Positions 3,627 to 19,447 of a stretch of DNA of 64,000 nt are shown here, piece after piece; the stretch's first letter is position 1, and each line of letters opens with the position of its first letter. The stretch spans positions 1-64,000 of the forward strand of contig NZ_MDFN01000026.1 in the NCBI RefSeq assembly GCF_001730525.1, in the 5' to 3' direction. The notes under the pieces are model-generated. The model saw only the letters and a program-made list of their open reading frames with translations, did not search any database and was not told the origin of the DNA. The translations under genes and the position numbers were made by a program. Origin of the DNA: Arcticibacter eurypsychrophilus (GTDB lineage Bacteria; Bacteroidota; Bacteroidia; Sphingobacteriales; Sphingobacteriaceae).

Positions 3627-4415
3627 ATGAAAGTAGCAATAGCATCTCCGCCATTTCCCAAATCTATCTGGGACGGTTTACAATGGGTTGAAAAACTAAT
3701 TATTGAAGCAGCCGACAAACAAGCTGAAATAATCTGCTTCCCTGAATCCTATATTCCGGGCTATTCAGGGCTAGACTATAAGGTAGAAGAACATTCACAA
3801 GAAAAGCTAGTATCAGCCTTAAATGAAGTACGTAAGATGGCTGCTGCAAATTCCATATCTGTTATCATACCTATGGATTGGTATCATCCAAAAGGGCTTT
3901 TAAATGTAGCCCATGTCATTTCAAATACCGGAGAAATACTAGGTTATCAGACCAAAAACCAGTTGGATCCTACTGAAGACAATATATGGATCCCAGGTAC
4001 TGAACGCAGTATTTTTGAAGTCAATGGTGTTAAATTTGGTATTACAATCTGCCATGCAGGATTTCGATATCCAGAATCGGTAAGATGGGCAGCGCAACGT
4101 GAGGCTAAAATTGTATTTCATCCGCACTGTGCTGGTAGCGATATTCAAGGAGTAAAACTTACAGAGTGGGGCAATAAAGACAATCCTTATTATGAAAAAG
4201 CAATGATGATGCGGGCATTAGAAAATACCATTTACTTTGCTAGTTCTAATTACGCATTTCAATACCCTGAATCAGCCAGCTCATTAATTGGCCCTCATGG
4301 AACTTGTATAGCCCACGAAACTTACGGCAAAACAGGAGTAATTGTAGCTGACATTGATCTTGATCTTGCTACAGGCTCCCTGGCAAAAAGGTTTAAGAAG
4401 AAGCTGTATGTTTAA
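3627..4415 (+). CDS. Carbon-nitrogen hydrolase (nitrilase superfamily)
   Basis: A 262-residue cytoplasmic protein with the full Glu-Lys-Cys triad of the nitrilase superfamily: Glu40 in FPESYIPGY, Lys110 in YQTKNQLDPTE and Cys142 in GITICHAGFRYPE. Length fits a single-domain amidase. These enzymes hydrolyse amides, nitriles or carbamoyl groups through a cysteine acyl intermediate; the particular substrate is not evident. It follows the CocE-type hydrolase closely on the same strand and may be co-transcribed, which would place two amide or ester hydrolases in one unit. The IS982-like element is inserted 38 bp behind its stop and does not damage it. Confidence 0.87.
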   Translation: MKVAIASPPFPKSIWDGLQWVEKLIIEAADKQAEIICFPESYIPGYSGLDYKVEEHSQEKLVSALNEVRKMAAANSISVIIPMDWYHPKGLLNVAHVISNTGEILGYQTKNQLDPTEDNIWIPGTERSIFEVNGVKFGITICHAGFRYPESVRWAAQREAKIVFHPHCAGSDIQGVKLTEWGNKDNPYYEKAMMMRALENTIYFASSNYAFQYPESASSLIGPHGTCIAHETYGKTGVIVADIDLDLATGSLAKRFKKKLYV

Positions 4416-4453: not shown

Positions 4454-5483
4454 AACGTGTTGTGCGATTAAAAAAAAGAAAAGAAAATGGATAAAAAAGT
4501 TATGCATAATACTGAAAATCAGTATCTTAAAGAGGAATTACAACCAAGTAAATTACTCTTTATGCACAACCTTTCGACTAATTTCAATCAATTTTTAGAA
4601 ATAACCAAATCTGTTTTTAAATCCTCTATCAATCAGGACAATAACTTTCGATTTTATCCCAGAAAACCAAAACTATCTGATTGTGAGATTATTGCCTTGG
4701 TGTTGACTGCTGAAGCTTTAGGCATTGACTCAGAAAATTACTTGTTTGGCAAGCTTAAGCACGATTATTCAGCTGAATTCCCACGGTTGATACATCGCTG
4801 CAATTTTAACCGGAGAAGAAAAGTAATCTTTCCCTGGTTGCAGCAGCTCAATGAACACCTGGCCAGGCAAATGAACGAAGGTGAAAATGTATTTATTGTG
4901 GATTCTATTCCTATTCCAATCTGTAAAATCGTTCGGGAGAAATCCTCTAAGATATGCAGGGAAAACTTTGATACGGCTCCTGATAAAGGATATTCCGCAG
5001 TCAACAAGGCTTGGTATTTTGGATATAAACTCCATCTGGTTAATCTGTAAAAGGGGTATTCTACTCTATGGACATTAGTAAAGCAAGCGTACATGACATC
5101 CATTATCTGAATGACATAAAGCACTCTGGATTAAATAATTGCACACTAATTGGCGACAGGGGCTATTTATCCAAAACCAGCCAGTTAGATTTATTCAATA
5201 CAGTTGAAATTCAGTTAAAGACTCCTATGCGTAATAATCAAAAAGACAAACAGCCATTTGAGCCTGTATTTAGGAAATGCAGAAAAAGGATTGAGACCTT
5301 ATTCGCTCAGCTATGTGACCAGTTCATGCTCAAGAGAAATTATGCTAAATCTTTGAAGGGGTTAGCGATGAGAATATTTGCCAAACTTGCCGCAGTTACT
5401 TGCTTACAGTCTATCAATATTAAAAACAACAAGCCAATTAATCAGCTTAAATATGCCCTCGCTTTTTAATCGCACAACACGTT
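4454..5483 (+). mobile_element. IS982-like insertion sequence, 1030 bp
   Basis: The element is bounded by perfect 21-bp terminal inverted repeats: 4454-4474 (starting AACGTGTTGTGCGATT) and the reverse complement at 5463-5483. A 7-bp direct repeat AATTTAT flanks it on both sides. Length about 1 kb, one transposase gene filling it, and a target duplication in the 7-9 bp range fit the IS982 family. The intact ends and exact duplication suggest fairly recent insertion, but the transposase is frameshifted, so the copy is probably not able to move by itself. Confidence 0.85.
4487..5469 (+). pseudogene. IS982-like transposase, split by a frameshift
   Basis: Two frames together give one IS982-type transposase. 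The first (4487-5050, 187 codons) ends in WYFGYKLHLVNL; the second continues from about 5044 in the -1 frame as SVKGVFYSMDIS and runs to 5469. The DDE residues are divided: Asp139 in FIVDSIPIPICK on the first part, Asp in LIGDRGYL (5155-5157) and Glu in KCRKRIETLFAQL on the second. Loss of one T after AAT near 5043 explains the break, because restoring it gives a continuous HLVNSVKGVFYS. Programmed frameshifting is unlikely: the A4G4 run lies behind the stop codon. Confidence 0.82.
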
Positions 5484-5669
5484 AATTTATATCAATGTTT
5501 GTTTGATTTCCCGATTACAGATAGATGTATATCATTTAGGAATATGTACTAAGATTCGTCTTGATTTAGACTAAAAATTTCTTCATTTTAAACAAAGCGG
5601 CTAAGAAATGCGAAGAAATCAACATTTTGCTAAACATTTGCAATTGGCATCATATTTGTAGTTATGAAT

Positions 5670-5845
5670 GTGGTTTATAATTGGTTAATATGAGCACCTG
5701 CCCATCAGGTGTTTTCTTTTAAACTTTCAATTTAATCATCCAAGTAAATTTCCAACCCATATTTCTTAATCCTTTAAACATTGTATATTCAGCTTTTAAT
5801 AATGCTGCCATCTTTTTATCATGCTGTGTAACTGGTATTACCTCT
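5670..5845 (-). pseudogene. Remnant of the oleate hydratase 3' end and its downstream flank
   Basis: This stretch matches 8213-8385, the flank and 3' end of the intact oleate hydratase gene. On the minus strand it still encodes PVTQHDKKMAALLKAEYT, against PVTPHNKNLAVLLKAVYT in the intact protein. The noncoding flank TTTATAATTGGTTAA and the small hairpin GAGCACCTG-CCCAT-CAGGTG correspond too. The rest of the gene is missing: the homology stops near 5840 and switches directly to the end of the PH-like membrane protein gene. It is the scar of an internal deletion of about 2 kb in a second copy of the locus. Confidence 0.75.
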
Positions 5846-6013
5846 TAATTGGCTTAGGAATACGGTTCACAAGCAAAGGAATGCTATATAATATCCAGGG
5901 CTCATCAGCAGTAGGAATCTTTAACTTAAATGGCAAGAACAAAACGGTCTTAATTGGCAGCAATGATCCGACTACAAAATTTTATCAAAAAAAATATCAC
6001 GCAGAAAACGAGC
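5832..6013 (+). pseudogene. Remnant of the PH-like membrane protein gene, 3' part
   Basis: The reading LGIRFTSKGMLYNIQGSSAV and TVLIGSNDPT here are identical to the C-terminal half of the intact gene at 10143-10604. The N-terminal membrane half is absent, and behind NDPT bases have been lost, so that the tail runs out of register with DFIKEKYLVENE before a readthrough into unrelated sequence. An ATG at 5821 allows a 97-codon frame, but its first codons come from the antisense of the oleate hydratase remnant and its last 30 are not conserved, so I call it dead. Confidence 0.75.
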
Positions 6014-6067
6014 AATCCCCACGAATGAGCCAATGGCTCCCCGTTCTGACAGAATGTGAAATATCTT

Positions 6068-6574
6068 TTACAGAGGTATGCCAGACAAGATATTATTTTT
6101 CTTATTATGAATGATAAACAACTCTGCACACGCCATAGCGTCAGATAAAGCATCATGATGCTGAAGCTTTATTCCATATTTATTACATACTAAATTTAAC
6201 TTTTGTCCATAGATTTTATAGGTGCAGTACGAATTAAATCCAGGAATTGCTAAACGGTAATACATCAAAGTTTGCTGTAAACAACTTACGTCAAATGAAC
6301 TATTATGCGCCACAATATTCTGATTGCAAATGAAGGGAGCTATGGAAGGCCAGATCTGATCAAAAGAAGGGGAATGACGTGTCATTTCAGAACTTATTCC
6401 ATGAATCTGAGTATTGAAGTAAGAGTAAGAGTTATCAGGAGGTTTAACCAATAACACGATCTTTCGGGTGATTATCCCTTGCTCAACTCTAACCAGGCCA
6501 ACCTGACAAATGCTATTCCTTTTTCCTTGAGCAGTTTCGAAATCTATTGCAGTAAAAGTGTTGATCGAATTCAT
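6068..6574 (-). CDS. DnaQ-like 3'-5' exonuclease (DEDDh)
   Basis: A 168-residue single-domain exonuclease with all acidic residues of the DEDDh group: Asp11 and Glu13 in TAIDFETA, Asp95 in AHNSSFDVSCL, and His140 and Asp145 in QHHDALSDAMACA. Such proteins, like the epsilon proofreading domain, remove nucleotides from 3' ends of DNA or RNA using two metal ions. There is no BRCT or polymerase part, so this is a stand-alone enzyme of unknown substrate. Its 3' end runs to the edge of the remnant of the PH-like gene. It lies between that remnant and the WYL regulator, inside the duplicated block, and has no second copy. Confidence 0.85.
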   Translation of the reverse strand: MNSINTFTAIDFETAQGKRNSICQVGLVRVEQGIITRKIVLLVKPPDNSYSYFNTQIHGISSEMTRHSPSFDQIWPSIAPFICNQNIVAHNSSFDVSCLQQTLMYYRLAIPGFNSYCTYKIYGQKLNLVCNKYGIKLQHHDALSDAMACAELFIIHNKKNNILSGIPL

Positions 6575-6694
6575 TTATATTTAAGAGAGATTAGTAAGAA
6601 GCTTAAGATGAAGTATTCTCTTTTTGTGACTCAAGCAGATTTAAAGTAAAATCATTGAATTGTAAGTATACCAACTTTAAATTAAATACGCCTC

Positions 6695-7714
6695 TCAATT
6701 AAAAACTACACCTGCTTTTTTAATCCTACTTTTTATCGATTTTCTTAATGAGGCCGGTTCAAGCACCTCTACTTCATCTGCAAAACTCATTATTAGCGAT
6801 TCCAATTCATAGTTAAGCGTCAGTCGAAGCCTTATTATAATATATTTTGCAGTTTCCGCTATTACCAGTTGGCTTTCATGTAATGGTTGACTTTTAATAT
6901 AAGGAAGCTTCGATTGGTTAAAGCGCAGTTTGATTTCTACAGGTTTAGCATTATGGAATATGGTAATACCAATAGTATCCTTAAAATATACATCAGGATC
7001 GGGCTTGTGTTGTTCATCATACTGAATATCAGCTAACACCTCAAAATTTCTGATTCTGTCTAAAGCAAAGGTTTGAATTTCCTTGTATTGATCATTCATT
7101 CCCAGCACGTACCAGCGATTACGATATTCCTTAAGTAGGTAAGGATGAAAAGGATGATTTCTTTCTGTCTGATCCAATCCGAAACGCAAATAAGTAATTT
7201 TGATCACCTGTTTTTTAATAATCGCATCCATCAATGGCTCAATAATGTCACTCCCCGAACTTTCAGGAATATTTTCGAATGCCACAATAGATTGAACCTT
7301 TTCATACTTATTTAGATGAACCTTCTGTTCCAACCGGTCTATTAGTGACTCAATTCCACGAAAAAATACTGCTCCTTTATATGTTTTCAACATCTTTACA
7401 ACAGCCGAAACATTGATTATATCCTTATTCGTCAACGAAACATTATTGATACTGAAGGTCTTATCCGAATAATAATACTTTCCATTCTTAACCTCAATAG
7501 GTGCATTAAACTCCAGTTTATCACTTCGCATTCTTCTGATATCCTCTTGAATAGTACGCTTACTTATGGTGTCCCTATTTGGATTTCCTCCTTTCTCTAT
7601 CAGATCTTGAGTGCATCGTTCAGCAAGGTAATCGAGGGTGCAACCATGAGTATACTCTTGCAAACAAGTATTTATAGAATGGTATCGTAATAAGGCATCA
7701 AAGTTTTTAGGCAT
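6695..7714 (-). CDS. WYL-domain transcriptional regulator
   Basis: I start the protein at MPKNFDALLRYHSIN (7714), giving 339 residues; the frame is open further upstream but this start is the usual one for the family and the extension would overlap the small membrane gene. An N-terminal winged helix-turn-helix is followed by the ligand-binding WYL domain, with HPYLLKEYRNRWYVLGMNDQ about residues 195-215 and the YxxxxxxFALDRI motif behind it. WYL regulators sense small molecules or nucleic acid and control DNA repair, defence or stress genes. It lies behind the 55-codon membrane gene, 80 bp away, and both probably use the promoter with the palindrome at 8004-8022. Confidence 0.85.
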   Translation of the reverse strand: MPKNFDALLRYHSINTCLQEYTHGCTLDYLAERCTQDLIEKGGNPNRDTISKRTIQEDIRRMRSDKLEFNAPIEVKNGKYYYSDKTFSINNVSLTNKDIINVSAVVKMLKTYKGAVFFRGIESLIDRLEQKVHLNKYEKVQSIVAFENIPESSGSDIIEPLMDAIIKKQVIKITYLRFGLDQTERNHPFHPYLLKEYRNRWYVLGMNDQYKEIQTFALDRIRNFEVLADIQYDEQHKPDPDVYFKDTIGITIFHNAKPVEIKLRFNQSKLPYIKSQPLHESQLVIAETAKYIIIRLRLTLNYELESLIMSFADEVEVLEPASLRKSIKSRIKKAGVVFN

Positions 7715-7794
7715 AATTCTAATCGTTAGCCGATTTAGTCCCGTAAATATATCATTACTGGAAGCCCACAGGAAAACATTTAAAATGATCCTCG

Positions 7795-7962
7795 TCACTC
7801 TTTGATTATATCTCTAGCTACCAACGTCCCTACACAATAAAAAAACAGTATGGCAAAAAAATAATAGTAGGACGGGTTCTTGATATTTGTAGATTCATTA
7901 ACTAATACGCAGATAAGTAAAAACAATGCAACAGTTAAAAAGCTAATTAGAACTTTCTTCAT
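7795..7962 (-). CDS. Small membrane peptide, 55 residues
   Basis: I read a 55-codon frame starting MKKVLISFLTVALF and ending TLVARDIIKE. It has two hydrophobic segments (about residues 4-21 and 33-48) joined by a short polar loop, so a two-helix inner-membrane peptide is likely. An A-rich stretch precedes the ATG. A second, broken copy of its 5' end together with its upstream palindrome lies at 10648-10767, which shows that this frame was part of a conserved, duplicated unit. It sits directly upstream of the WYL regulator on the same strand. Function unknown; it resembles no family I recognise. Confidence 0.6.
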   Translation of the reverse strand: MKKVLISFLTVALFLLICVLVNESTNIKNPSYYYFFAILFFYCVGTLVARDIIKE

Positions 7963-8003
7963 TCTTTTTTTAATTTAGATTAGCAACAAAGATGCTAGCG
8001 AGG

Positions 8004-8022
8004 TATGCAGGGTATCTGCATA
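8004..8022. promoter_or_regulatory. Palindromic operator TATGCAG-N5-CTGCATA, copy 1
   Basis: A perfect 7-bp inverted repeat with spacer GGTAT, about 40 bp upstream of the small membrane gene on the minus strand. Read on that strand, a CATCTTTG box (7 of 8 to TAnnTTTG) lies behind it at 7988-7995, so the palindrome covers the -33 region, a good place for a repressor. The same palindrome with one base changed in the spacer is kept at 10749-10767. The bound protein is not known; the WYL regulator is the nearest candidate. Confidence 0.6.
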
Positions 8023-8083
8023 TTTAAAAAAAAGTTTAAAAAAGTTGTAAATAAAGCTTAATGATCTGAAATTCTCTTATACC

Positions 8084-8201
8084 CCCTTGAGGACTGAGTT
8101 AAGCATGTACTGGGCGACAATTTAACTTTGCTCAGTCATTAGCGATCAAAAAGCCTCCTCGAGGAGTACGTCAAGCATGACCTGGGTGACAATCATACTT
8201 G
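8084..8201. repeat. Imperfect direct repeat, two units of about 47 bp
   Basis: Unit 1 (8084-8130) and unit 2 (8154-8201) share the order CTTGAGGA / CTCGAGGA, GT(T/C)AAGCATG, CTGGG(C/T)GACAAT and ACTTG. They lie 70 bp apart in the 340-bp gap between the palindrome and the oleate hydratase gene. Neither unit encodes anything visible. They may be binding sites, or the ends of a lost small element. Confidence 0.6.
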
Positions 8202-8305
8202 TTTATCACAATATGGCTTATAATTGGTTAACATGAGCACTTGCTCATCAGGTATTTTCTTCGAACCTTCTCTCAATCATAACCAACAATTTCTTACAAT
8301 CTCAA

Positions 8306-9895
8306 TTATCTAAACGCCGTGTATACCGCTTTTAATAATACCGCCAGATTTTTATTATGTGGTGTAACCGGAATGACTTTTCTATCAATACCCAATAATG
8401 TATAAACTGCTATCTTTGCTGCACGAACTGAATACTCTTCAGTAAACACCATATCATCTGCAATTTCAACAAACTGACTATGAAAAGCAAGATTAGTAGA
8501 GCCTTTAGGCACGACTAATGGCCTGTCACTCTTAGCTCGGGGCTGAAACAAAGCATCAACATAAGGCATCATTACCGGAATCACATTGATTACAGTATCC
8601 TTGATTTCTGTTTCATAAGCCTCAAAATGAAGATGATGGATAAGTTCCGTCAAAATCTCCTCCCCAGTACAATCAATCATAGGTTTTTTAATATAGTCTC
8701 CTATTTTATCCGGATACAATCCATATCCCCATAAAATAGTAGTATCCTCAAGTTGTGCTGCAAAATGAGGTTGCGCAGAAACAACAATGGACATCAGCCA
8801 GCTGGAGTCGACGAAACTCATCAATGCTCCGCTTCCAGGTTTATTATTAGAGAAATCCTCTATCAGCTTCAGCATTTTATTATCCTTAAAAGTAGCTGTG
8901 AAAGAGTACCATTTAGTTTCATCCGGCTTACCAAAAAAAGGTGCGGGATTTCCCAAGCCAGGTTTCTTCCTGGAGATGTTACTCCATAAAACACCCGAAA
9001 CAGGCTCATTAGGCAAGTACCTGGCCGGAGTATGATAATTACCTAAATTCGCATTATCGGTAATACAGCCATTCGTCACCATACAAAGATCTCCTTTCTT
9101 TAAAACAAAGGATCCTGAATTCCCCTCTGCAGCCGTATAACGGATGGCGCTGACTGTAATGGCATCCCCCGGTATAAAGTCTAAATCCGTTACGGTACAC
9201 CTCAACAAATAATCTATATTAAACTGTTCCAAATGTTTTTTTATAGGCAATATGATCGATTCATATTGATTATAAGGCGTCCTGGTCACACCTGCTAAAG
9301 TTTCAATGCGTGAAAATTCACGAATCATTCTGTTCATATACCGTTTCAGTTCAAGAAGACTCGACCACTTCTGAAAAGCAAAAGTCGTCTGCCACATGTA
9401 CCAAAAGTTAGTAGTGAAGAAATGATCATCAAACCACTCCTTGATCGTCCGGTTCTCAAGCTCTTTCTCATCCATCCGCATCAATTTCAACAATCTTAAA
9501 CGATCCCTGTTATCAAAGCCCATCGAATGAACATCTAGAATTTTACCTACTTTATTAATAAGCCGAGCATTAGCATGAGTCGGGTTAGCATGATCAAATG
9601 CCAATACCTCATCTTTTACCGAAATATGAGGCACATTCAAGGAAGGGATCCGGCTAAGCAGCTCCCAAAGATTTTCATAAGTCTCCTCATTTAGCATCCT
9701 CCCCCCACGGCATACAAAACCATCTTGTTTAGTGCCAGAACCATCATTACTCCCACCAAGAATAGGCAAGGCTTCTATAATGTGAATGTTCTCTCCCTTA
9801 AATCCAGCATCCTCTATCAAATATAAGGCACCAGCTAAAGAACCTAAACCACCTCCAACGAAATAAGCTTGTTTGTTTTTATTGTTTTCATTCAT
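8306..9895 (-). CDS. ohyA: Oleate hydratase (myosin-cross-reactive antigen family)
   Basis: This FAD protein adds water to the cis-9 double bond of oleate and related acids, giving 10-hydroxystearate. Starting at MNENNKNK (9895) it has 529 residues; the frame is open ten codons further, without support. The dinucleotide motif YFVGGGLGSLAGALYL is at residues 11-26, followed by HIIEALPILGGSNDG and the substrate-site motif RGGRMLN at 63-69. Many hydratases carry RGGREM with a catalytic Glu; the MLN form belongs to the subgroup of Rhodococcus OhyA, as far as I recall. The gene stands alone on the minus strand; a broken 3' copy lies at 5670-5845. Confidence 0.9.
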   Translation of the reverse strand: MNENNKNKQAYFVGGGLGSLAGALYLIEDAGFKGENIHIIEALPILGGSNDGSGTKQDGFVCRGGRMLNEETYENLWELLSRIPSLNVPHISVKDEVLAFDHANPTHANARLINKVGKILDVHSMGFDNRDRLRLLKLMRMDEKELENRTIKEWFDDHFFTTNFWYMWQTTFAFQKWSSLLELKRYMNRMIREFSRIETLAGVTRTPYNQYESIILPIKKHLEQFNIDYLLRCTVTDLDFIPGDAITVSAIRYTAAEGNSGSFVLKKGDLCMVTNGCITDNANLGNYHTPARYLPNEPVSGVLWSNISRKKPGLGNPAPFFGKPDETKWYSFTATFKDNKMLKLIEDFSNNKPGSGALMSFVDSSWLMSIVVSAQPHFAAQLEDTTILWGYGLYPDKIGDYIKKPMIDCTGEEILTELIHHLHFEAYETEIKDTVINVIPVMMPYVDALFQPRAKSDRPLVVPKGSTNLAFHSQFVEIADDMVFTEEYSVRAAKIAVYTLLGIDRKVIPVTPHNKNLAVLLKAVYTAFR

Positions 9896-10142
9896 GATTT
9901 TAAACGTTTTGTTTAATAAAACCATCTTGCTGCCTGTCCATTAATCTGGTGCAGCTATTTGAACGCATCAATAATGACTGGGAGAGTCGGGAGAATGCTA
10001 ATATGATAGCATAAACGGGCTTGTGGTATATTAACTTAACTACCAGGATCTACTAATTGTTTCTCCCTATCTAAAACAGAAACATAAACAAGTGATTTAC
10101 AAGATAAAGATTTTATTTTTACGCTATTTATCCATAAAAATT

Positions 10143-10604
10143 ATGAAATATCAAAATACTCAAATAGGATGGTTTATAATGGTCATCTTTCTATTAATCC
10201 CTGTTCATTTAACTTATGCGTACTTTGCTCAAATAGGCAATAACCCTTTGTCTTTTCCAGCATATCTTGCTTTATCCATACTATTTATTCTAATCATTTT
10301 ATGCTTTTATAAATTGCAAGTAAAAGTAGATCAATCAGGAATTCACGTAATTTTCGGAATAGGGTTAATTCATATTAATATTACACCTGAAAAAGTTTAT
10401 CAGGTTCGGGTCGTACATACGCCTTGGTATTATGGTTTAGGAATAAGGTTCACCAGCAAAGGAATGTTGTATAATATCCAGGGCTCATCTGCAGTAGAGA
10501 TATCCTATTTAGATGGCAAGAAGAAAACAGTCTTAATTGGCAGCAATGATCCGACTGCGTTGAAAGATTTTATCAAAGAAAAGTATCTGGTGGAAAATGA
10601 GTGA
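10143..10604 (+). CDS. Two-helix membrane protein with PH-like cytoplasmic domain
   Basis: From the ATG at 10143 (MKYQNTQIGWF) the protein has 153 residues; the frame is open 17 codons upstream. Two membrane helices (about residues 8-28 and 38-57) are followed by a beta-rich domain with LQVKVDQSGIHVIFG, TPEKVYQVRVV and RFTSKGMLYNI, which resembles bacterial PH-like domains of small membrane proteins. Function unknown. It is divergent from the oleate hydratase gene, with 247 bp between them, and was duplicated together with it, because a truncated copy follows the hydratase remnant at 5832-6013. Confidence 0.6.
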   Translation: MKYQNTQIGWFIMVIFLLIPVHLTYAYFAQIGNNPLSFPAYLALSILFILIILCFYKLQVKVDQSGIHVIFGIGLIHINITPEKVYQVRVVHTPWYYGLGIRFTSKGMLYNIQGSSAVEISYLDGKKKTVLIGSNDPTALKDFIKEKYLVENE

Positions 10605-10647
10605 TTCAGTAAAGAGATTAAAACTAAGTATTCTTTGTTTATCATCA

Positions 10648-10707
10648 TCAATTTATACATCTCTGGAAACAATGCAAGGTTAAAAAGCTAATTAGAGCTT
10701 TCTTCAT
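10648..10707 (-). pseudogene. Truncated second copy of the small membrane peptide
   Basis: The first ten codons (MKKALISFLT) match those of the intact 55-codon gene at 7962 (MKKVLISFLT). A base loss after ACC then shifts the frame and a TGA at 10648 ends it after 19 codons. The upstream flank and palindrome are conserved as in the intact copy. No WYL regulator follows, which shows that this half of the duplication has lost its regulator. Confidence 0.65.
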
Positions 10708-10748
10708 TCTTTCATTATTTTTAATTCGCAACAATGATGAAAGCAAAG

Positions 10749-10767
10749 TATGCAGGGCATCTGCATA
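10749..10767. promoter_or_regulatory. Palindromic operator TATGCAG-N5-CTGCATA, copy 2
   Basis: The same perfect 7-bp inverted repeat as at 8004-8022, with spacer GGCAT instead of GGTAT. It precedes the truncated small membrane gene on the minus strand, and lies 80 bp before the cREC gene on the plus strand, so it may now influence that gene. Conservation of both arms beside a decayed reading frame suggests that the site itself has been under selection, or that the duplication is young. Confidence 0.55.
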
Positions 10768-10845
10768 TTAAGAAAAAAGCTAAAAAACTTTTATAAAAGG
10801 ATTAATAACTAGGAATAAACAAAATAAATCCGATACTTACCAAAA

Positions 10846-11187
10846 ATGGGATATAAACTTTTTCTTGATGACCTACGATCTGTAAATATGGTTTATAAAG
10901 ACCTCAGCGATCATGATTTTATTATAGTAAGAAGCTATCTCGATTTTGTAAATTATATATCCGAAAACGGCCTTCCCGATTTCATTAGTTTTGATAATGA
11001 TCTCGGCGAAGATGAATTACAATGCCTGCTTCCTGATGGTTATGCTTGTGCTAAATGGTTGGTTTATGATAGAGAATTCGATCTCAGAAACTTAAAGTTC
11101 AACGTCCATTCAGCCAATCCTGTAGCAAAAGTGCAAATTGAATCATTACTGAATAATTATCAAAAATTTCTAAAGAACGAGGAGTAA
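10846..11187 (+). CDS. Cyclic-phosphate processing receiver-like protein (cREC)
   Basis: A 113-residue protein made only of a receiver-like domain. The N-terminal LFLDDLR (residues 5-11), the acidic FDNDLG (49-54) and the late VHSANP (87-92) are the marks of the cREC family (PF20274 as I recall), predicted to handle cyclic phosphate groups in nucleotide or RNA metabolism. No output domain is attached. The stop is followed after four bases by the start of a WYL regulator, so the two are probably translated together and work in one circuit. Biochemical activity of this family is, to my knowledge, only predicted. Confidence 0.75.
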   Translation: MGYKLFLDDLRSVNMVYKDLSDHDFIIVRSYLDFVNYISENGLPDFISFDNDLGEDELQCLLPDGYACAKWLVYDREFDLRNLKFNVHSANPVAKVQIESLLNNYQKFLKNEE

Positions 11188-11191
11188 ATCT

Positions 11192-12145
11192 ATGAACAGG
11201 ATCGACCGCCTTTCCGCAATTCTTATTCAGTTACAGTCGCGTAAAAACACAAGGGCGCAGGATGTTGCCAACCGTTACCAAATCAGTTTGCGCACCGTTT
11301 ACCGGGATATCCGTTCACTCGAAGAAGCCGGAGTGCCCATTATTGGTGAAGCCGGAAGAGGTTATTCCCTTGCTGATGGTTATCGCCTCCCTCCTCTTAT
11401 GTTTACACGCGAAGAAGCAACGGCTTTCATTACAGCAGAGAAACTGGTAATTTCCTTAACCGATCAGGAAAACAGTAAATCTTACACACTTGCTATGGAT
11501 AAGATTAGGGCAGTGCTTAAACGAACCGACAAGGATTACCTGGAAGATCTGGACACACGAATAAAAGTAATTAAAAGCAAACGGGATCCTGAGTTCAAAG
11601 AACACGCTAACCCACTTCAGATAATACTGCAAGCTATTGCGGATAAAAAGGTGATGCGAATGACTTATTACGCCTATTACCGGCAGGAACAAACATTAAG
11701 GTTAGTGGAGCCCATAGGCGTTTTTTATCTGGATAACTACTGGCACCTGATTGCTTATTGCAGGGAAAGAAAAGCCTGCCGTGATTTTCGCTTTGATCGC
11801 ATAAAAAGTATCGAAATAACAAACGAATGTTATCAAGACGTTCATATCAGTCTGGAAAACTACCTCATTGATCAGTATAAGGAATATTCAGTAATAGAAA
11901 TTACCCTTCTTGTTGATCAGGAGGCATCATTTCATTTGGGTGAACAAAAATATTACCAGGGATATGTTTCTGAAAAACAAACTTCAAAAGGCGTAGAAAT
12001 GAAGTTTATGACTCTATCTCCTGAAGGATTTTGCCGCTGGTATCTGTCTATCGCAGATTGTGCCATTATCCTTCAACCCGATTCCATTAAGAAAAAAGCA
12101 CAGCTATTATTTAATACCATTAAAAAAAATATTAATTTTATTTAG
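11192..12145 (+). CDS. WYL-domain transcriptional regulator, YafY type
   Basis: A 317-residue regulator. The winged HTH covers residues 3-60, with the recognition region NRYQISLRTVYRDIRSLEEAG, followed by GRGYSLADGYRLPPLMFT, typical of the DeoR-like YafY group. The WYL domain spans about 145-215 and contains MTYYAYYR and PIGVFYLDNYWHLIAYC, and a C-terminal WCX-type extension ends the protein. Its closest relatives regulate neighbouring genes in response to a ligand. Placement four bases behind the cREC gene suggests that it controls, or responds to, the product of that enzyme. The DinB-family gene follows after 59 bp. Confidence 0.87.
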   Translation: MNRIDRLSAILIQLQSRKNTRAQDVANRYQISLRTVYRDIRSLEEAGVPIIGEAGRGYSLADGYRLPPLMFTREEATAFITAEKLVISLTDQENSKSYTLAMDKIRAVLKRTDKDYLEDLDTRIKVIKSKRDPEFKEHANPLQIILQAIADKKVMRMTYYAYYRQEQTLRLVEPIGVFYLDNYWHLIAYCRERKACRDFRFDRIKSIEITNECYQDVHISLENYLIDQYKEYSVIEITLLVDQEASFHLGEQKYYQGYVSEKQTSKGVEMKFMTLSPEGFCRWYLSIADCAIILQPDSIKKKAQLLFNTIKKNINFI

Positions 12146-12702: not shown

Positions 12703-12708
12703 CTGAAT

Positions 12709-12744
12709 AAAATACCACCTCCCTTTTCCAAGAGGTGGTATTTT
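12709..12744. terminator. Bidirectional terminator between convergent genes
   Basis: A perfect 13-bp stem, AAAATACCACCTC (12709-12721) with its complement at 12732-12744 and a 10-nt loop. A and T runs at the stem ends let it act in both directions. It ends the cREC/WYL/DinB unit and the receptor operon from the other side. Confidence 0.85.
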
Positions 12745-12752
12745 ATCAGATC

Positions 12753-13586
12753 TTACTCAACCTTTCTTTCCACTGATTCCACTAGTGAAGTGCCAAAATA
12801 GCCTGTCACATTTCTTGAACTTTCGGTCAGCTTTTGTACATTAGCACGTGAATTAGTTAGAGGAGAAGCAAAAATCCCACCACTCTGAAGTTGAGTGCTT
12901 AAGTCAGCCCAAAAGTCAAAAGCACCCCGAGTCAGTGACCATACTTCTGCTTTTATTACATCATCCTTTACAAACGGCGTATCTATCTGAAGTTCGGTTT
13001 CGCTAATATAATTCCCATCAACAAACTCGTCTGAAAAAAAATTAATATCATTTGCTTTATTTAGATAAGTATTGTTTCGATAAAGTTTAACCAGCATATA
13101 GTCCCCCTCTCCTGGTAGCTCCTGTCCGTAAATAAATGGATAATAACCAGCATCTTCATGAACAATAGATTTTTCTTCGTACTTAATTCGAATAGAATCA
13201 GGAGCCATAGAGATCCGTGGCATTTTAGAAATTACTTCATAACTTCCTTCTGAACATAGTATTCGCAAGGTATACGTTCTACCTTCTACTCCCTTCAAAT
13301 TTGCTATTTCATATTTACCCGGACTTACTTCTTTAAGCACTTCCTTATTACCAGCGTCATCATTAAGGGTCAAAGTGGCATTAGTTACAGGTGGATAGCT
13401 GTTTTTTTCTGCCAATGTTTTTGTCAAATACAATTTAACATATTGATTTCCGGGAAGATTTGTAAGCCAGCCTTCCACAACAAGCGCCGGAGTACCTTCA
13501 TTTGTTTTAAAATCTATTGTATCTTCGCATGAGGAAAACAGGAGCGAAGAGAAGAACATCACTATTAATAAGTTTACTATTTTCAT
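12753..13586 (-). CDS. DUF4249 lipoprotein, receptor partner
   Basis: A 277-residue lipoprotein with a signal peptide and lipobox FSSC (Cys20). The EGWLTNLPGNQYVKLYLTKTL and YTLRI regions, with Ig-like beta-strands, are typical of DUF4249, a Bacteroidetes family usually encoded directly behind a TonB-dependent receptor. It likely sits on the outer-membrane surface or periplasmic face beside the receptor, in the manner of SusD-like partners, though no ligand is known. Ten bases separate it from the receptor gene, so they are co-transcribed. It is the last gene of the five-gene operon that begins with the ECF sigma factor. Confidence 0.82.
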   Translation of the reverse strand: MKIVNLLIVMFFSSLLFSSCEDTIDFKTNEGTPALVVEGWLTNLPGNQYVKLYLTKTLAEKNSYPPVTNATLTLNDDAGNKEVLKEVSPGKYEIANLKGVEGRTYTLRILCSEGSYEVISKMPRISMAPDSIRIKYEEKSIVHEDAGYYPFIYGQELPGEGDYMLVKLYRNNTYLNKANDINFFSDEFVDGNYISETELQIDTPFVKDDVIKAEVWSLTRGAFDFWADLSTQLQSGGIFASPLTNSRANVQKLTESSRNVTGYFGTSLVESVERKVE

Positions 13587-13596
13587 GGTATGTGTA

Positions 13597-15960
13597 TTAA
13601 AATTTAAAATTCCAGGTTACTGATGGTATTACGGATCCAAACATTGAAAAGCGAATTGTTTCCAGATCAGCTGGTCGATCTTCAACCTGACGGGGGTAAA
13701 CAGAAAATGCGTTTTTACGGTTCAGTGCGTTAAATAAGGATACGACCCATTCACTTGTAAATTTTCGACCTGGTATCACTTTCTTTTTAAAAGTTGCTGA
13801 TACGTCGAGTCGATGGTAATCAGGGATCCTGTAATTGTTTCGAAAATTCCCTGAATTATACTGAACCGGCAAGCCATCAAACTCAAACCTTCCATCAGGT
13901 AGTGTAGTGGGCACTCCGGTGGCGTAGCTATAGGTACCAGAGAGTAGAATTCTTGGTTTCAACTGGTATACCGCAACCACAGAAAGTGCATGTGTTTTGT
14001 CATACTTAGCCGGATAAAACGCAGCATTATTAATTCCTTCAATTTGTCTTTCCGTTTTGCTGAATGTATAGCTTACCCAGCCATTCAGTCGTCCGCTATT
14101 TTTCTTTAGGTAAAACTCCGAACCATAGGCACGCCCTTTCCCGAACAACATGTCGCCTGGCAAATCCTCATTTAATAAGGTTTCAGCTCCATCAATAAAA
14201 TCGATCTGATTATTCAACTTTCTGTAATAAACCTCTGCCGATGCTTCATATTTATCATTAAAGAAGTTGCGGAAATAACCTGTTGATACCTGATCTGCGG
14301 TCTCGGGTTTAACATTATAAGAACTGGGAGTCCAAATATCAAGTGGACTTGACGAAATGGTATTCGAAATTAAATGAAGATTTTGAGATGTACGGCTGTA
14401 AGATGCTTTAATTGAGGCATCTTCCCCTGTTTTTATCTTCATGGATAACCGAGGCTGTAAATTTTGGTACCATTTGATGGTTGCCCAGTCATCAAAAACC
14501 TTTTGATTTACGGGCAATTTACGTTCACCAGTAACTCCTTCATAGTCACTCACTAGAGTTGTTCCTTTGGCTAGATTTTGAAATGCAGTATATCTTAAGC
14601 CGTACTCCACGGAGAAAACATTAGATATTTCCAATTCATGATCCCAATATAAGCTATATTCAGCAGCACGATTTCCGGGCATCTCTATAGTATTAAAAAT
14701 GGAATTATCACTTTGAGGTGTAGCCTTTCCAGGACGGAAATCGTGAAGACTAGCTTCTATCCCAAAATAAACGGTACTTTTTGAATTCTGATACCAACTA
14801 TAGGCGTTCTTAAGCGTGTAATCAACAATAGATGCATCCCAATTAAAACTAGTTGCAGGATTCTCCATTGCACCTAAGCGATATTTATAATCTGAATAAA
14901 TCAGACTTGTATTTGAAAAAAGGCGCGGACTGTAAATATGATTCCATCTAACTGTACCTGTTCCGTTTGCCCACTGAAGAAGAAATCTATTTGCAGCTTC
15001 AATTTTATCCTTTCCAAAATAACCTGAAACAAAAAGACGGTCATTATCTGACAAAGCGAAGTTCAGTTTAGCGCTCAAATCATAAAAATAGATAGAATTA
15101 TCACGAATACTCGGGTCTGATGATTGTTTGGTAAGAACATCCGTATAGGAACGCCTTGCACTAACAATCATAGAACTTTTATCTTTCTTTAACGGACCTT
15201 CTGCAGTGAAACGGCTTGCTATAAGCCCTAATCCACCTGCAAAGTTCCATTCTTTATTATTTCCATCCTTCATCCGTGTATCCAGAACAGAAGAAAGGCG
15301 CCCTCCAAATCTAGCCGGCATCTCGGTTTTATATAGAGAAGCCTCTTTTATCGCATCAGGATTGGCAACAGAAAAGAGGTTAAACAAGTGTGAAGTAAAA
15401 TAAAGAGGCGCCTCATCAAGCAAAACAAGGTTCTGATCGACTCCTCCACCTCTTACATTAAATCCTGATGCTCCATCACCAACTGTACTGACTCCAGGAA
15501 GGAGTTGGAAAGAGCGGATTAAATCAGCTTCCCCAAGAAAAGCAGGCAGTTGTTTTACTTCAACCATGGAAAGAGGAGCCACATTAACAGGTCTGCTTAC
15601 ATTATCCCGTTTTGAAACTGAGCTAATTATAACTTCATCCATCACATTTGAAGCAGGCATTAGATTAATATTTAAAGAAGTATCTCTTTTCAAAGTAAGA
15701 TTCATTTCCATCCTCTCATATCCTACATAAGAGAACCATACTTTGTATGTACCTGGGCGAATACTTAATGAATAGAATCCATAACTATTTGCTGGAGCCT
15801 TAGCAGCAATACCAACAATAGATACCACCGCACCAGTAAGACTTTCGCCACTTACACCATCTTTAAGATAACCGCTTAAGGTAATGCTCTTTTGCGCAAT
15901 CGCTGTTGTTTGCATTGATAATATAAGCAATGCCAAGTAGAACAGTTTAAGAATTTTCAT
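13597..15960 (-). CDS. TonB-dependent receptor with N-terminal CarboxypepD-like domain
   Basis: A 787-residue outer-membrane receptor. After a signal peptide (1-22) comes a CarboxypepD_reg-like beta-sandwich (about 26-105), then the plug with EVKQLPAFLGEADLIRSFQLLPGV and GFNVRGGG, and a 22-strand-type barrel ending in VTWNFKF, with the terminal Phe usual for barrel assembly. It imports an unknown large or scarce ligand using TonB energy. It has no STN signalling domain; that domain is on the separate protein encoded just upstream (16041-17714), which is unusual. The DUF4249 gene follows. The operon's sigma/FecR pair presumably responds to occupancy of this receptor. Confidence 0.9.
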   Translation of the reverse strand: MKILKLFYLALLILSMQTTAIAQKSITLSGYLKDGVSGESLTGAVVSIVGIAAKAPANSYGFYSLSIRPGTYKVWFSYVGYERMEMNLTLKRDTSLNINLMPASNVMDEVIISSVSKRDNVSRPVNVAPLSMVEVKQLPAFLGEADLIRSFQLLPGVSTVGDGASGFNVRGGGVDQNLVLLDEAPLYFTSHLFNLFSVANPDAIKEASLYKTEMPARFGGRLSSVLDTRMKDGNNKEWNFAGGLGLIASRFTAEGPLKKDKSSMIVSARRSYTDVLTKQSSDPSIRDNSIYFYDLSAKLNFALSDNDRLFVSGYFGKDKIEAANRFLLQWANGTGTVRWNHIYSPRLFSNTSLIYSDYKYRLGAMENPATSFNWDASIVDYTLKNAYSWYQNSKSTVYFGIEASLHDFRPGKATPQSDNSIFNTIEMPGNRAAEYSLYWDHELEISNVFSVEYGLRYTAFQNLAKGTTLVSDYEGVTGERKLPVNQKVFDDWATIKWYQNLQPRLSMKIKTGEDASIKASYSRTSQNLHLISNTISSSPLDIWTPSSYNVKPETADQVSTGYFRNFFNDKYEASAEVYYRKLNNQIDFIDGAETLLNEDLPGDMLFGKGRAYGSEFYLKKNSGRLNGWVSYTFSKTERQIEGINNAAFYPAKYDKTHALSVVAVYQLKPRILLSGTYSYATGVPTTLPDGRFEFDGLPVQYNSGNFRNNYRIPDYHRLDVSATFKKKVIPGRKFTSEWVVSLFNALNRKNAFSVYPRQVEDRPADLETIRFSMFGSVIPSVTWNFKF

Positions 15961-16040
15961 AATTTTAAGTAATTGTTTTCATATAGTACAACGTCTTCAG
16001 GCTTTACCCCTACGCACTTTGTAAATATTTAGCAGATTAA

Positions 16041-17714
16041 TTAAAAAATTGATATTCCAGCACTCCAGCCTACCCAACCCCGAACGCGGTCATTGGAAGA
16101 GATCTTAAAAGTTTTTATTTTATGGGGAATCAACTTATATCCATCGAATTCTTTATCCTGATCAGAATAAAACAGGTTGAAAGATGGACCTGCAAAAGCA
16201 GAGATGTATTTGTTTAATTTAAAAGACAAATTCAGATTAAATCTATTGAGCGAATTGGTATAGTCTGTACTACCCTGATAAACGTAAAGGTTAAGAATCT
16301 CCGGATTTATAGATAGATGATTGGTAACCTGATAGGCTTTCCCAAGCCCTAATCCATTAAGATTTTTCCCGAACTGAATAATCGTATACAGTTGATTTGT
16401 GCCTGTTCTTACAACTAGATTTTTGCTGTTTATTTCATTTGATGACCCAGACAGCGAATGGATACCATTCTTACGAATAATATTAATTAAACCAAGACTA
16501 ATCCCCGATGCTGTATCTGCTATATTGACCAAACCAAACTGTAAACCCTTTTGTTTTCTTGCTATATTGAGCAAGCTCACTTGCGCCCCTTTCATCTCCT
16601 TACCCGCGATGTTAACAATTCCAGCAATCTGCAGTCCCCCAACATTCTTACTCGAAAAATTAGCAATTCCTCCCACCTGAACGCCCATTACCGATCCTAA
16701 AGCTATATTAAGAACCCCTCCTACCTCGATTCCTCTAACAGCACCAAGTACTCCATTGCCCAAGCCTGCAACCTGAACTCCAGCTACAGACTCCCCTACA
16801 ATATTAAAAAGCCCTGCTACTTGCACACCCTTAACATATCTCTTATTTATGTTAAATAATCCACCAGTTTCAACGCCTTCCACTCCTGCAGTATATCCTC
16901 CCAATAAATTATAGGAAAAATTATTGATAACTTGCCCGCTTAACATGCCATGAGAACTGAGGCCTGGAACTATAGAAGCCTGTACCGGACTTTGCGTTAT
17001 AAATCCAGGTACATTCAAGTCTTGGATTTTTTGTTTAGAACTGACCAATAACCTACCTAAGAATGTTTTATCCGAAACAGATCCACTCTCAGACCAATAT
17101 TCATCATTTTCATGAATAGAGCCATCTGAATTTACATTTACAGAAGAGAGAATAAGGACAGTTGTATCACGATAATTCTCTTTACTTACGGTGAGTGCTA
17201 TTGTGTTATTCTGTGTATTGATTTTAATGTCAAAAGTTCCATCATTATCTGTTAAAGCAGAGCGAAGCAGTTTTTTTTCATATACACTTGCCTTAGAAAT
17301 CTTCTTTCCAGTACGGTCGTCTATCACTACTCCGCTGATAAAATATAATCCATTTATATTTTGAACTTTATCGGCAATTAATGACAATCTAAGTGGTGCG
17401 TAACGAAGAATTACATATCCCGCAGTTTCTTTATATTCGAATTGATCACCAAACAGATGGTCAAGAACATCCCTAACCGTTTCATCGGTAACAGAAAGAC
17501 TTACTATGCTGTCAAGGGGTACAATAGCACTATTATAAGAAAATCTAAACCCACACTTTTGGCCAATTTTAGCCAATACGTCCTCCAGATGTAAGTGCTG
17601 CGCCTGAACTGAAATTCGCTTAGACAATAAACCCTGAGCGCTTAGTTCTTTAGGCGGGAAACAAAATACAAATAGGATGATAGTCAAAAGAAATCTCCAA
17701 TTTCTGTTTAACAT
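16041..17714 (-). CDS. STN-domain protein with glycine-rich repeats, separate signalling module
   Basis: A 557-residue exported protein. A signal peptide (about 1-26) leads to an STN (secretin/TonB short N-terminal) domain at about 38-105, VLAKIGQKCGFRFSYNS and TVRDVLDHLFG, and a CarboxypepD_reg-like domain (about 125-200). Residues 265-415 hold about eight units of roughly 18 residues of the form GVQVAGLFNI, which read as a beta-solenoid or barrel-like repeat. The end, VGWSAGISIF, looks like a last barrel strand. STN domains normally contact FecR from the N-terminus of a receptor; here the receptor lacks it and this protein, between FecR and receptor, may relay the signal. Three bases separate it from FecR. 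Confidence 0.72.
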   Translation of the reverse strand: MLNRNWRFLLTIILFVFCFPPKELSAQGLLSKRISVQAQHLHLEDVLAKIGQKCGFRFSYNSAIVPLDSIVSLSVTDETVRDVLDHLFGDQFEYKETAGYVILRYAPLRLSLIADKVQNINGLYFISGVVIDDRTGKKISKASVYEKKLLRSALTDNDGTFDIKINTQNNTIALTVSKENYRDTTVLILSSVNVNSDGSIHENDEYWSESGSVSDKTFLGRLLVSSKQKIQDLNVPGFITQSPVQASIVPGLSSHGMLSGQVINNFSYNLLGGYTAGVEGVETGGLFNINKRYVKGVQVAGLFNIVGESVAGVQVAGLGNGVLGAVRGIEVGGVLNIALGSVMGVQVGGIANFSSKNVGGLQIAGIVNIAGKEMKGAQVSLLNIARKQKGLQFGLVNIADTASGISLGLINIIRKNGIHSLSGSSNEINSKNLVVRTGTNQLYTIIQFGKNLNGLGLGKAYQVTNHLSINPEILNLYVYQGSTDYTNSLNRFNLNLSFKLNKYISAFAGPSFNLFYSDQDKEFDGYKLIPHKIKTFKISSNDRVRGWVGWSAGISIF

Positions 17715-17716
17715 CC

Positions 17717-18670
17717 TTATTTAAGAATAATAGTGTTACCTCTATGCTCAACCTGAATATTGAATGTTTCACTAACCACATGCAAGATATCATCAAGAGA
17801 GGCGTTCGAGAAGGTGGTATTGATCTTTAACATTTCAAGGTCTTTCGTTTCAATTACAATATGTACGTCATAGGTATCATTAATTGCCCCAACCAGTTCA
17901 TAAAGAGGCGTGTTGCGGCAAACAAACCTCCTATTTTTATACGACTTATAAAAAGTACTGCTATTCATTCCTTTTATAAAACTATCCTCCTGACTCGCAA
18001 TCACTTTTTCACCAGCCACTAGCTGCACATAATCATTATTTTTATGTACATCCACAATTCCTGATTCAACGATAACTTCCGTTTTTCCCTTTCTGCTTTT
18101 TATATTAAAAGACGTTCCAACTACGGTAACAGTAACCTTATTTATGCGGACAATAAACGGATGACCCTTGTCAGCTGAAACATTAAAAAATGCCTCGCCT
18201 TGCATAGATATGTTTCTTTGAGCCCCCTTGAAACGTGATGGATAGCTGAGCGTGCTATTTCTATTTAAGGTAACTATAGAACCGTCAGGTAATGTTTTTG
18301 AAAGAATTTGTTGACGACTATTTAAATGAACAAATTGAACAGTTTTTGAGCTGAAATATTTAGATACCCCAATGGCGCCTGCAGTGCAGATAAGTAAAAA
18401 GAGAGCTGCGATTCTGATCCATGATGGCAAAGTAGAAACCCTATTACCACTTTTTTGCCTTAAGATAATTCTCTTTTTGAATCTATCCCATGCAACATTC
18501 ACATCTACATTACTTTTGTAAGCTACCTCATCACTCTTCTCCCAGATCAGTTTTAAATGCCTAAAGTAGCGTTCATTCTCAGCATTCGTTTCCATCCATT
18601 GAATAACTGTTGCTTTTTCATCTTCATCAGTTTCTCCAGCAAGATATTTTACCAGTAAATCATCTTTCAT
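17717..18670 (-). CDS. FecR-family anti-sigma factor
   Basis: A 317-residue inner-membrane regulator from the ATG at 18670 (MKDDLLVKYLAGE); an ATG five codons upstream is possible. The N-terminal cytoplasmic part binds the sigma factor, a membrane helix lies at about residues 80-98 (WIRIAALFLLICTAGAIG), the FecR domain (about 110-200) has MQGEAFFNVSADKGHPFIV and a DUF4974-like domain ends the protein. It should hold the sigma factor inactive until a signal arrives through the STN protein in the periplasm. It overlaps the sigma gene by 11 bases, so the two are translationally coupled. Confidence 0.9.
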   Translation of the reverse strand: MKDDLLVKYLAGETDEDEKATVIQWMETNAENERYFRHLKLIWEKSDEVAYKSNVDVNVAWDRFKKRIILRQKSGNRVSTLPSWIRIAALFLLICTAGAIGVSKYFSSKTVQFVHLNSRQQILSKTLPDGSIVTLNRNSTLSYPSRFKGAQRNISMQGEAFFNVSADKGHPFIVRINKVTVTVVGTSFNIKSRKGKTEVIVESGIVDVHKNNDYVQLVAGEKVIASQEDSFIKGMNSSTFYKSYKNRRFVCRNTPLYELVGAINDTYDVHIVIETKDLEMLKINTTFSNASLDDILHVVSETFNIQVEHRGNTIILK

Positions 18671-19271: not shown

Positions 19272-19447
19272 AATATGGATTAAATTTCGCTGTAAATGTA
19301 AGATTTAGCTATGTATTATGGGTCATGTTATCTGTACTTTATGACCTTAAAAAGCTTGCCAGATCTATTTAGATAGTTTTATTTATCGACCTTTGGCATC
19401 TTATGAATATTTAAAATATTCAACAAAAGAATAGTTAAGCGATAAAA

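What the first reader, a model, noticed from the sequence alone, without database searches (positions are those of the whole stretch)
5670..10767. Decayed tandem duplication of an oleate hydratase / PH-protein / WYL / small-peptide unit
Unit 1 (5670-8022) keeps the WYL regulator, the small peptide gene and the palindrome but has only scars of the hydratase and PH genes, joined directly to each other. Unit 2 (8213-10767) keeps hydratase and PH but lost the regulator and has a truncated peptide gene. The two halves complement each other, so together they still hold one complete set.
Basis: partly seen in the sequence, partly recalled or inferred. Interest (0 to 1): 0.62.

Follow-up and report, generated by a model that had tools for sequence, protein, structure and literature searches.

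The report
Doubled gene block, each half decayed
In an Arcticibacter bacterium a five-gene stretch of chromosome was copied side by side, and each copy then lost genes that the other kept, leaving readable scars; it is a clear example of a known process rather than a new system.

Summary
Two head-to-tail copies of one segment (5649-8062, 8192-10806) share four blocks in the same order, 73-83% identical, including non-coding parts. Copy 2 keeps hydratase and PH, and has lost exonuclease, WYL and most of the peptide, but keeps the palindrome.

Arcticibacter svalbardensis has the same address in single copy between the same flanking genes, with a hydratase-tail scar and other genes where hydratase and PH would be. 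No intact undivided unit was found.

Best explanation: tandem duplication followed by reciprocal loss along transcription-unit lines, the outcome that the SNAP hypothesis and the mitochondrial duplication-loss model predict. A merger of two diverged alleles is not excluded. The palindrome is probably the WYL regulator's operator; it may survive in copy 2 because it lies before the neighbouring gene cREC. The genes are not a conserved functional module.

The parts
3627..4415 (+). left flank: carbon-nitrogen hydrolase gene, 94.7% aa identical and at the same address in A. svalbardensis
4487..5469 (+). transposase in two frames (187 + 133 aa; DDE_Tnp_1), between flank and copy 1; absent from the A. 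svalbardensis locus
5649..5848 (-). copy 1, left end: hairpin element plus scar of about the last 24 codons of the hydratase gene
5672..5731 (+). hairpin element E1 (multi-copy covarying element with U-rich tail), hairpin complete
5849..6015 (+). copy 1: scar of the last 40% of the PH gene (residues 94-154), joined directly to the hydratase scar; 35 of 40 aligned codons encode the same residue as copy 2
6068..6574 (-). copy 1: intact DEDDh-type exonuclease gene (RNase_T), 83% identical to the A. svalbardensis gene
6585..6643 (.). copy 1: part of the WYL-exonuclease spacer, of which a remnant lies in copy 2 behind PH
6695..7714 (-). copy 1: intact WYL-WCX regulator; likely start near 7714 (the upstream part is frame-broken in A. 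svalbardensis)
7795..7962 (-). copy 1: intact 55-aa peptide gene, 76% identical to the A. svalbardensis peptide
8005..8021 (.). palindrome P1 ATGCAG-N5-CTGCAT, 42 bp upstream of the peptide start
8063..8191 (.). joint between the copies: 129 bp with an imperfect direct repeat (8082-8128 / 8154-8200)
8215..8274 (+). copy 2: hairpin element E2; hairpin weakened
8306..9925 (-). copy 2: intact oleate hydratase gene (MCRA)
10140..10604 (+). copy 2: intact 154-aa 'PH' protein gene, family unassigned
10603..10655 (.). copy 2: remnant of the WYL-exonuclease spacer; exonuclease and WYL genes missing on either side
10656..10712 (-). copy 2: truncated peptide gene (19 codons left)
10750..10766 (.). palindrome P2, 79 bp upstream of cREC
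10846..12145 (+). right flank: cREC and a WYL/HTH_11 regulator gene, 86% and 92% aa identical and at the same address in A. svalbardensis

Best explanation
The ancestral segment, between a carbon-nitrogen hydrolase gene and cREC, read: hairpin element - hydratase (minus) - PH (plus) - exonuclease, WYL regulator, peptide (one minus operon) - palindromic promoter. It was duplicated in tandem. Because each gene was then redundant, each copy lost one transcription group: copy 1 lost hydratase and PH by an internal deletion, copy 2 lost exonuclease and WYL plus most of the peptide by at least two deletions. One full set remains, now in the order exonuclease-WYL-peptide | hydratase-PH. What survives in the dead parts fits what is still needed: E1 keeps a complete hairpin behind upstream plus-strand genes while E2's is weakened, and the palindrome is kept in both copies, P1 before the WYL operon and P2 before cREC. 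The regulator in copy 1 probably binds both. Shown: collinearity, scars, intact complements, same flanks in single copy in the sister species. Inferred: ancestral order, event order, promoter and operator function, redundancy as the cause of loss.
For: Four collinear blocks including non-coding ends. Copy 1's left flank and copy 2's right flank are both collinear with A. svalbardensis, as a tandem duplication in place requires. A. svalbardensis carries a hydratase-tail scar between the same hydrolase gene and exonuclease-WYL-peptide-cREC, so hydratase once stood there too. Over 40 codons the PH scar has 86.7% identity, dN 0.056 and dS 0.60 to copy 2 (NG86; few codons, so a rough figure): both copies were under protein-level constraint for most of the time since they diverged, and decay came later. 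That dS is within the 0.37-0.84 seen for this genome against A. svalbardensis across the locus. The palindrome is conserved 18 of 19 in both copies and A. svalbardensis against 86 of 135 outside, P 0.002. It is the only exact site in the A. svalbardensis draft genome, and near matches stand before the WYL gene or its upstream ORF in the next nearest relatives.
Against: No genome with the undivided unit, or with two intact copies, was found. Timing is unresolved: over the shared ends copy 2 has 27 and 21 private changes, A. svalbardensis 21 and 17, copy 1 17 and 8; copy 2 against A. svalbardensis is not significant (p 0.47 and 0.63), and neither a pre-split nor a post-split duplication under a clock fits exactly. 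Long coexistence of two constrained copies is not what one expects of a fresh tandem duplication. No long direct repeat that could have made the duplication is left at the edges; the repeat in the joint has one weak relative elsewhere in the genome. The hairpin folds are not unusual against shuffles (z -0.7 to -1.6). That losses follow transcription units rests on one locus and on operons inferred from sequence.
Confidence: 0.66

Rival explanations
1. Merger of two diverged alleles. The second copy came from another Arcticibacter-like lineage and was joined to the resident locus by homologous recombination (a natural merodiploid); the two then shared out the genes by reciprocal loss. The surviving set is a chimera of two lineages.
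For: The copies are about as diverged (17-27%) as the two species' genes in this locus. PH diverged under constraint, dN/dS about 0.09 over 40 codons, natural for copies living in separate genomes. Copy 2's ends are further from A. svalbardensis than copy 1's. Exonuclease, WYL and peptide have higher dS against A. svalbardensis (0.71-0.84) than the flanks (0.37-0.62). The hydratase is patchy: 58 of 399 family genomes, this one included, have any relative, and 3 others have one at 70% or more.
Against: No donor found. The outer flanks are collinear exactly as for a duplication in place. A single crossover would make copy 2's right end resident and thus nearer to A. svalbardensis; the opposite is seen (68% against 77%), though the block is short.
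Confidence: 0.25
2. Insertion of a hydratase-PH cassette beside a resident exonuclease-WYL-peptide operon, dragging in short flanking pieces; no full second copy ever existed.
For: Hydratase and PH are absent as intact genes from the A. svalbardensis locus.
Against: Copy 1 holds scars of hydratase and PH in the right order and A. svalbardensis holds a hydratase scar; copy 2 holds remnants of the WYL-exonuclease spacer, the peptide and its promoter region. Both sides carry pieces of both halves.
Confidence: 0.06
3. Chance similarity, shared repeats or an assembly error.
For: The hairpin element at the left end is a multi-copy element, so that part alone would not prove duplication.
Against: A search of the own genome with 5640-8100 found, besides these two copies, only two further places, both matching the hairpin element; PH matched only these two places. 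Order is kept; E-values of the three main blocks are 3e-27 to 1e-39; sister-species synteny agrees.
Confidence: 0.02

Closest known systems
SNAP hypothesis (Brandis and Hughes 2020, PMC7055797; abstract and passages seen)
   Same: Segmental duplication, loss of different genes from each copy, changed gene order; pseudogenes with matching active copies named as possible remains of old duplications.
   Different: SNAP is framed for large duplications (tens to hundreds of genes) driven by positive selection and fixed by loss of essential genes. Here the segment is 2.5 kb, no gene is known to be essential, and selection is not testable. The authors report the first two steps in natural isolates and say more evidence is needed. 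PMC8046335 (passages) invokes SNAP for rearrangements of a conserved operon cluster.
Tandem duplication-random loss model of animal mitochondrial gene order (search listing only; content recalled)
   Same: Head-to-tail duplication followed by complementary loss gives a block swap.
   Different: Bacterial chromosome; loss follows inferred transcription units, and scars are still legible at about 80% identity.
DriD/PafBC-type WYL regulators (DriD passages seen in PMC12340889)
   Same: WYL and WCX domains; a (pseudo)palindromic site in a divergent promoter region; a nuclease among the targets or neighbours; small membrane protein (recalled for DidA).
   Different: Only WYL/WCX-level similarity to solved WYL proteins (best E 1.2e-5); ssDNA binding and damage response untested.
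Oleate hydratase of the 5odo type (recalled: Rhodococcus enzyme)
   Same: NCBIfam equivalog above cut-off (712.5 against 567 bits) and the stretch RGGRMLNEETYENLW shared with 5odo.
   Different: Activity and substrate untested.

Membership tests
Tandem duplication with reciprocal loss (SNAP / duplication-loss) | two collinear head-to-tail copies | tested here: met
Tandem duplication with reciprocal loss (SNAP / duplication-loss) | each copy lacks genes that the other keeps, with scars | tested here: met
Tandem duplication with reciprocal loss (SNAP / duplication-loss) | gene order changed against an undivided relative | tested here: inconclusive
   A. svalbardensis gives the single-copy address but has itself lost hydratase and PH
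Tandem duplication with reciprocal loss (SNAP / duplication-loss) | direct repeats at the edges able to make the duplication | tested here: not met
   no long repeat left at the edges; could have decayed, and not every duplication needs one
Tandem duplication with reciprocal loss (SNAP / duplication-loss) | positive selection for the duplication (SNAP only) | not testable with these tools
   -
Oleate hydratase (MCRA) | full-length family match above the curated cut-off | tested here: met
   PF06100 651.2 bits, NF010584 712.5 bits
Oleate hydratase (MCRA) | hydration of oleate | not testable with these tools
   -
WYL transcription regulator | WYL and WCX domains | tested here: met
   PF13280 52.4 bits, PF25583 47.2 bits
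[quoted passage not shown]
   no Pfam HTH match for this protein
WYL transcription regulator | palindromic operator at its own promoter | tested here: inconclusive
   sequence evidence only
DriD/PafBC-type damage regulators | binds ssDNA and induces repair genes | not testable with these tools
   -
PH-domain protein | sequence or fold match to PH families | tested here: inconclusive
   no Pfam match up to E 5 but a SUR7 hit at E 0.28; no NCBIfam match; single-sequence model pLDDT 53 with two N-terminal helices and a strand-rich rest, no fold search run

The most novel reading that the evidence does not exclude
A legible fossil of gene-order change in a bacterium: one 2.5-kb segment doubled, then sorted by whole transcription units, with the non-coding ends decaying only where they were no longer needed. 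The duplication would have split one regulator's operator into two separately placed promoters and rewired the neighbour cREC without moving it. (Probability lowered from 0.40 to 0.33 on re-check: E2's hairpin is weakened, not destroyed.)
Probability: 0.33. Interest if true: 0.55.

Novelty: new member of a known kind. Interest (0 to 1): 0.42.

Why it matters
Duplication followed by reciprocal loss is proposed as a route of gene-order change in bacteria, but once complete it leaves no feature unique to it, and the authors of the SNAP hypothesis suggest looking for intermediates in modern genomes (PMC7055797, passages). This locus looks like such an intermediate at base resolution, with a sister species for comparison. 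It shows which pieces are lost and which are kept, and can be tested by sampling more Arcticibacter strains.

Tried and rejected
Functional module (hydratase + PH + WYL): rejected. Of the 20 of 399 family genomes with both a PH and a hydratase relative (read) only this one has them within 100 kb. Of 80 WYL loci only A. svalbardensis has exonuclease and peptide beside WYL; L168 has a 30%-identical exonuclease about 9 kb away.

Plasmid carriage: 22 of 72,556 plasmid records match; the 20 listed match in the hydratase gene only, at 60-80% identity, and none covers 80% of the query.

Defence system: PADLOC gives WYL, DEDDh, Cas3c and PDC-S48 models for the WYL and exonuclease proteins and nothing for peptide, PH and hydratase; I read these as domain-level matches.

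Dating by three-way site counts: no resolution. A first dN/dS for the PH scar was in the wrong frame and is void; one search replaces it.

Palindrome elsewhere in this genome: the other two of four sites lie at the 5' end of a SusC-like ORF as listed and in a dnaX-like ORF (names recalled); treated as chance. Sites in G001 (two), G002 and G003 (one each; G004 none) were not examined for neighbours. No site with 4 or fewer mismatches lies between hydratase and PH.

PH fold from a single sequence: too poor for a fold search.

The A. svalbardensis MoxR-like gene has no orthologue here, best 43%; the other genes of that block were only compared with the window, without a match.

Literature: searches showed me no worked bacterial example with scars in both copies; I saw listings only, plus passages of PMC7055797, PMC8046335, PMC12340889 and PMC5435697. 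The listings of searches showed nothing on this locus.
Full report
WHAT WAS CHECKED. The window lies in a 4,686,437-bp genome in 93 contigs. The only other searched genome in which I found this locus is Arcticibacter svalbardensis MN12-7 (G005 of the same genus, contig NZ_AQPN01000051.1). Size and contig number fit A. eurypsychrophilus MJ9-5, reported as 4,687,084 bp in 97 contigs (PMC5435697, passage); that is a fit, not a proof.

THE OBSERVATION. BLASTN shows four blocks in the same order in 5649-8062 and 8192-10806: 193 bp at 73%, 163 bp at 83%, about 42 bp at 76%, and 177 bp at 77%. The weak block was re-tested: the linker behind PH in copy 2 aligns to the spacer between exonuclease and WYL in copy 1 with a score that 0 of 300 shuffles reach. 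The first block holds a non-coding hairpin element and the hydratase 3' end, the second the PH 3' end, the last the peptide start and its promoter region with the palindrome. So copy 1 = hydratase tail, PH tail, exonuclease, WYL, peptide, palindrome; copy 2 = hydratase, PH, spacer remnant, a 19-codon peptide remnant, palindrome. Each of the five genes is intact once.

SISTER SPECIES. A. svalbardensis has the same flanks: hydrolase 94.7% identical on one side, cREC 85.8% and the next regulator 91.8% on the other, with one exonuclease-WYL-peptide operon and one palindrome between. Beside the hydrolase gene it has the hairpin element and about 30 codons of decayed hydratase tail. This abuts the stop codon of the last of nine ORFs (eight on one strand) that look like a MoxR/DUF58 gene block (names recalled; no family search run), in place of hydratase and PH. 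This genome has no orthologue of the MoxR-like gene (best 43%). The hydratase therefore stood at this address in a common ancestor. It was probably lost there independently: the scar reaches about 6 codons further into the gene than copy 1's and is joined to something else. The spacer between WYL and exonuclease is about 10 bp in A. svalbardensis and 120 bp here; an insertion before the duplication or a deletion there would explain it, and I cannot tell which. No intact undivided unit was found among 6 genomes of the genus searched with PH, 399 of the family searched with PH and with hydratase, or the 80 best WYL loci.

AGE AND ORIGIN. The 40 alignable codons of the PH scar show dN 0.056 and dS 0.60 against copy 2. 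So the copies diverged mostly while both coded for a working protein, for roughly as long as the two species (dS 0.37 to 0.84 across this locus). Private changes in the shared ends are 27/17/21 (left) and 21/8/17 (right) for copy 2, copy 1 and A. svalbardensis. Three sequences cannot be rooted, and copy 2 against A. svalbardensis is not significant. Duplication in place near the time of the species split is the simplest reading. Merger of two diverged alleles by recombination explains the constraint at least as well and is kept as the main rival.

WHY THESE PIECES WERE KEPT. The losses follow transcription groups as read from gene order: the divergent hydratase/PH pair from one copy, the peptide-WYL-exonuclease operon from the other. 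The left element folds in copy 1 as a 9-bp hairpin before a U-rich stretch on the + strand, where + strand genes read towards it. In copy 2 the same stem has a mismatch and more G-U pairs (read) and the minimum-energy fold is another one; none of these folds is unusual against shuffles. The palindrome is 18 of 19 conserved in copy 1, copy 2 and A. svalbardensis against 86 of 135 outside, P 0.002. It lies 42 bp before the peptide in copy 1, 79 bp before cREC in copy 2, and between the two genes in A. svalbardensis. It is the only exact site in the A. svalbardensis genome and two of the four in this one. A site with one mismatch stands some 570 bp before the WYL gene of Pararcticibacter (L108), ahead of an ORF between them (read by eye), and another within 100 bp before the WYL gene of Desertivirga (L109); L011 has one with two mismatches within 70 bp. 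Four of the six sites with at most one mismatch in 1,366,460 bp of 80 WYL loci lie in the three nearest loci. Upstream of the ten more distant WYL genes examined there was none (which examined 13 of 80 loci). In Desertivirga the fourth, an exact site, lies upstream of what reads by eye as a small membrane protein. This makes the palindrome the probable operator of the WYL regulator, by inference from sequence.

WHAT THE GENES MAY DO. The hydratase is a full-length oleate hydratase, nearest to 5odo among solved structures. The regulator has WYL and WCX domains. A WYL regulator with a palindromic site, a nuclease and a small putative membrane peptide recalls DriD of Caulobacter, which is activated by ssDNA (PMC12340889, passages); I give that analogy about one chance in four. 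The 'PH' protein matches no family and its single-sequence model is poor. Nothing ties hydratase and PH functionally to the WYL operon.

VERDICT. The finding is real and its interpretation essentially right. The process is known in concept (SNAP hypothesis, PMC7055797; duplication-random loss in mitochondria, listing). The value lies in the preserved intermediate.

Noticed in passing
window 5672-5731 and 8215-8274 (+); L005, L006, L199-L211, L215-L217: A multi-copy covarying element: nearly invariant GGTTTATAATTGGTTA, then a hairpin and a U-rich tail. 7 copies in this genome. BLAST: 24 of 41 genomes match at E 0.05, 11 of 41 at 1e-5, those 11 all in the family. Covariance model: 9 of 118 phylum genomes; repeated strong hits in three family genomes, the other six single hits at E 0.002-0.01. 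In 21 aligned copies (short BLAST hits L212-L214 left out; structure taken by me from copy 1) 7 of 8 pairs have changes on both sides and 0 of 500 shuffles reaches the covariation score. Some copies follow stretches that look like tRNA 3' ends (TpsiC-like motif in 5 of 18 loci), but ARAGORN calls a tRNA in only 1 of 18 loci (L206) and Rfam in 1 of 8. No Rfam match on the element in the window up to E 1; one sub-threshold rnk_pseudo hit overlaps it in L215. Candidate small RNA or terminator family.
   Followed up: partly
L109:20065-20081: An exact copy of the palindrome in Desertivirga arenae, upstream of what reads by eye as a small membrane protein, about 9 kb from its WYL gene: a possible further target of the regulator.
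   Followed up: partly
L103 (G149), L104 (G064), L105 (G020): The three nearest hydratases in the family (70-72%) each sit in tandem with a second hydratase gene, 38-39% identical to the query; one search counts one TAA inside the nearer copy in G064 and G020.
   Followed up: no
L025 (G042): A 65%-identical cREC gene also stands beside a distant (28%) WYL regulator gene in a genome of another family.
   Followed up: no
window 8082-8128 and 8154-8200: Imperfect 47-bp direct repeat (74%) in the joint of the two copies; one weak relative elsewhere in the genome (C1:129285-129326, 84%).
   Followed up: partly
window 4487-5469: Transposase split into two frames between the hydrolase gene and copy 1, absent from the A. 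svalbardensis locus.
   Followed up: no
window 12704-19424: About 6.7 kb here, with an ORF that looks like a TonB-type receptor (recalled, not searched), has no match in the corresponding place of A. svalbardensis, where the two sides lie 160 bp apart.
   Followed up: no
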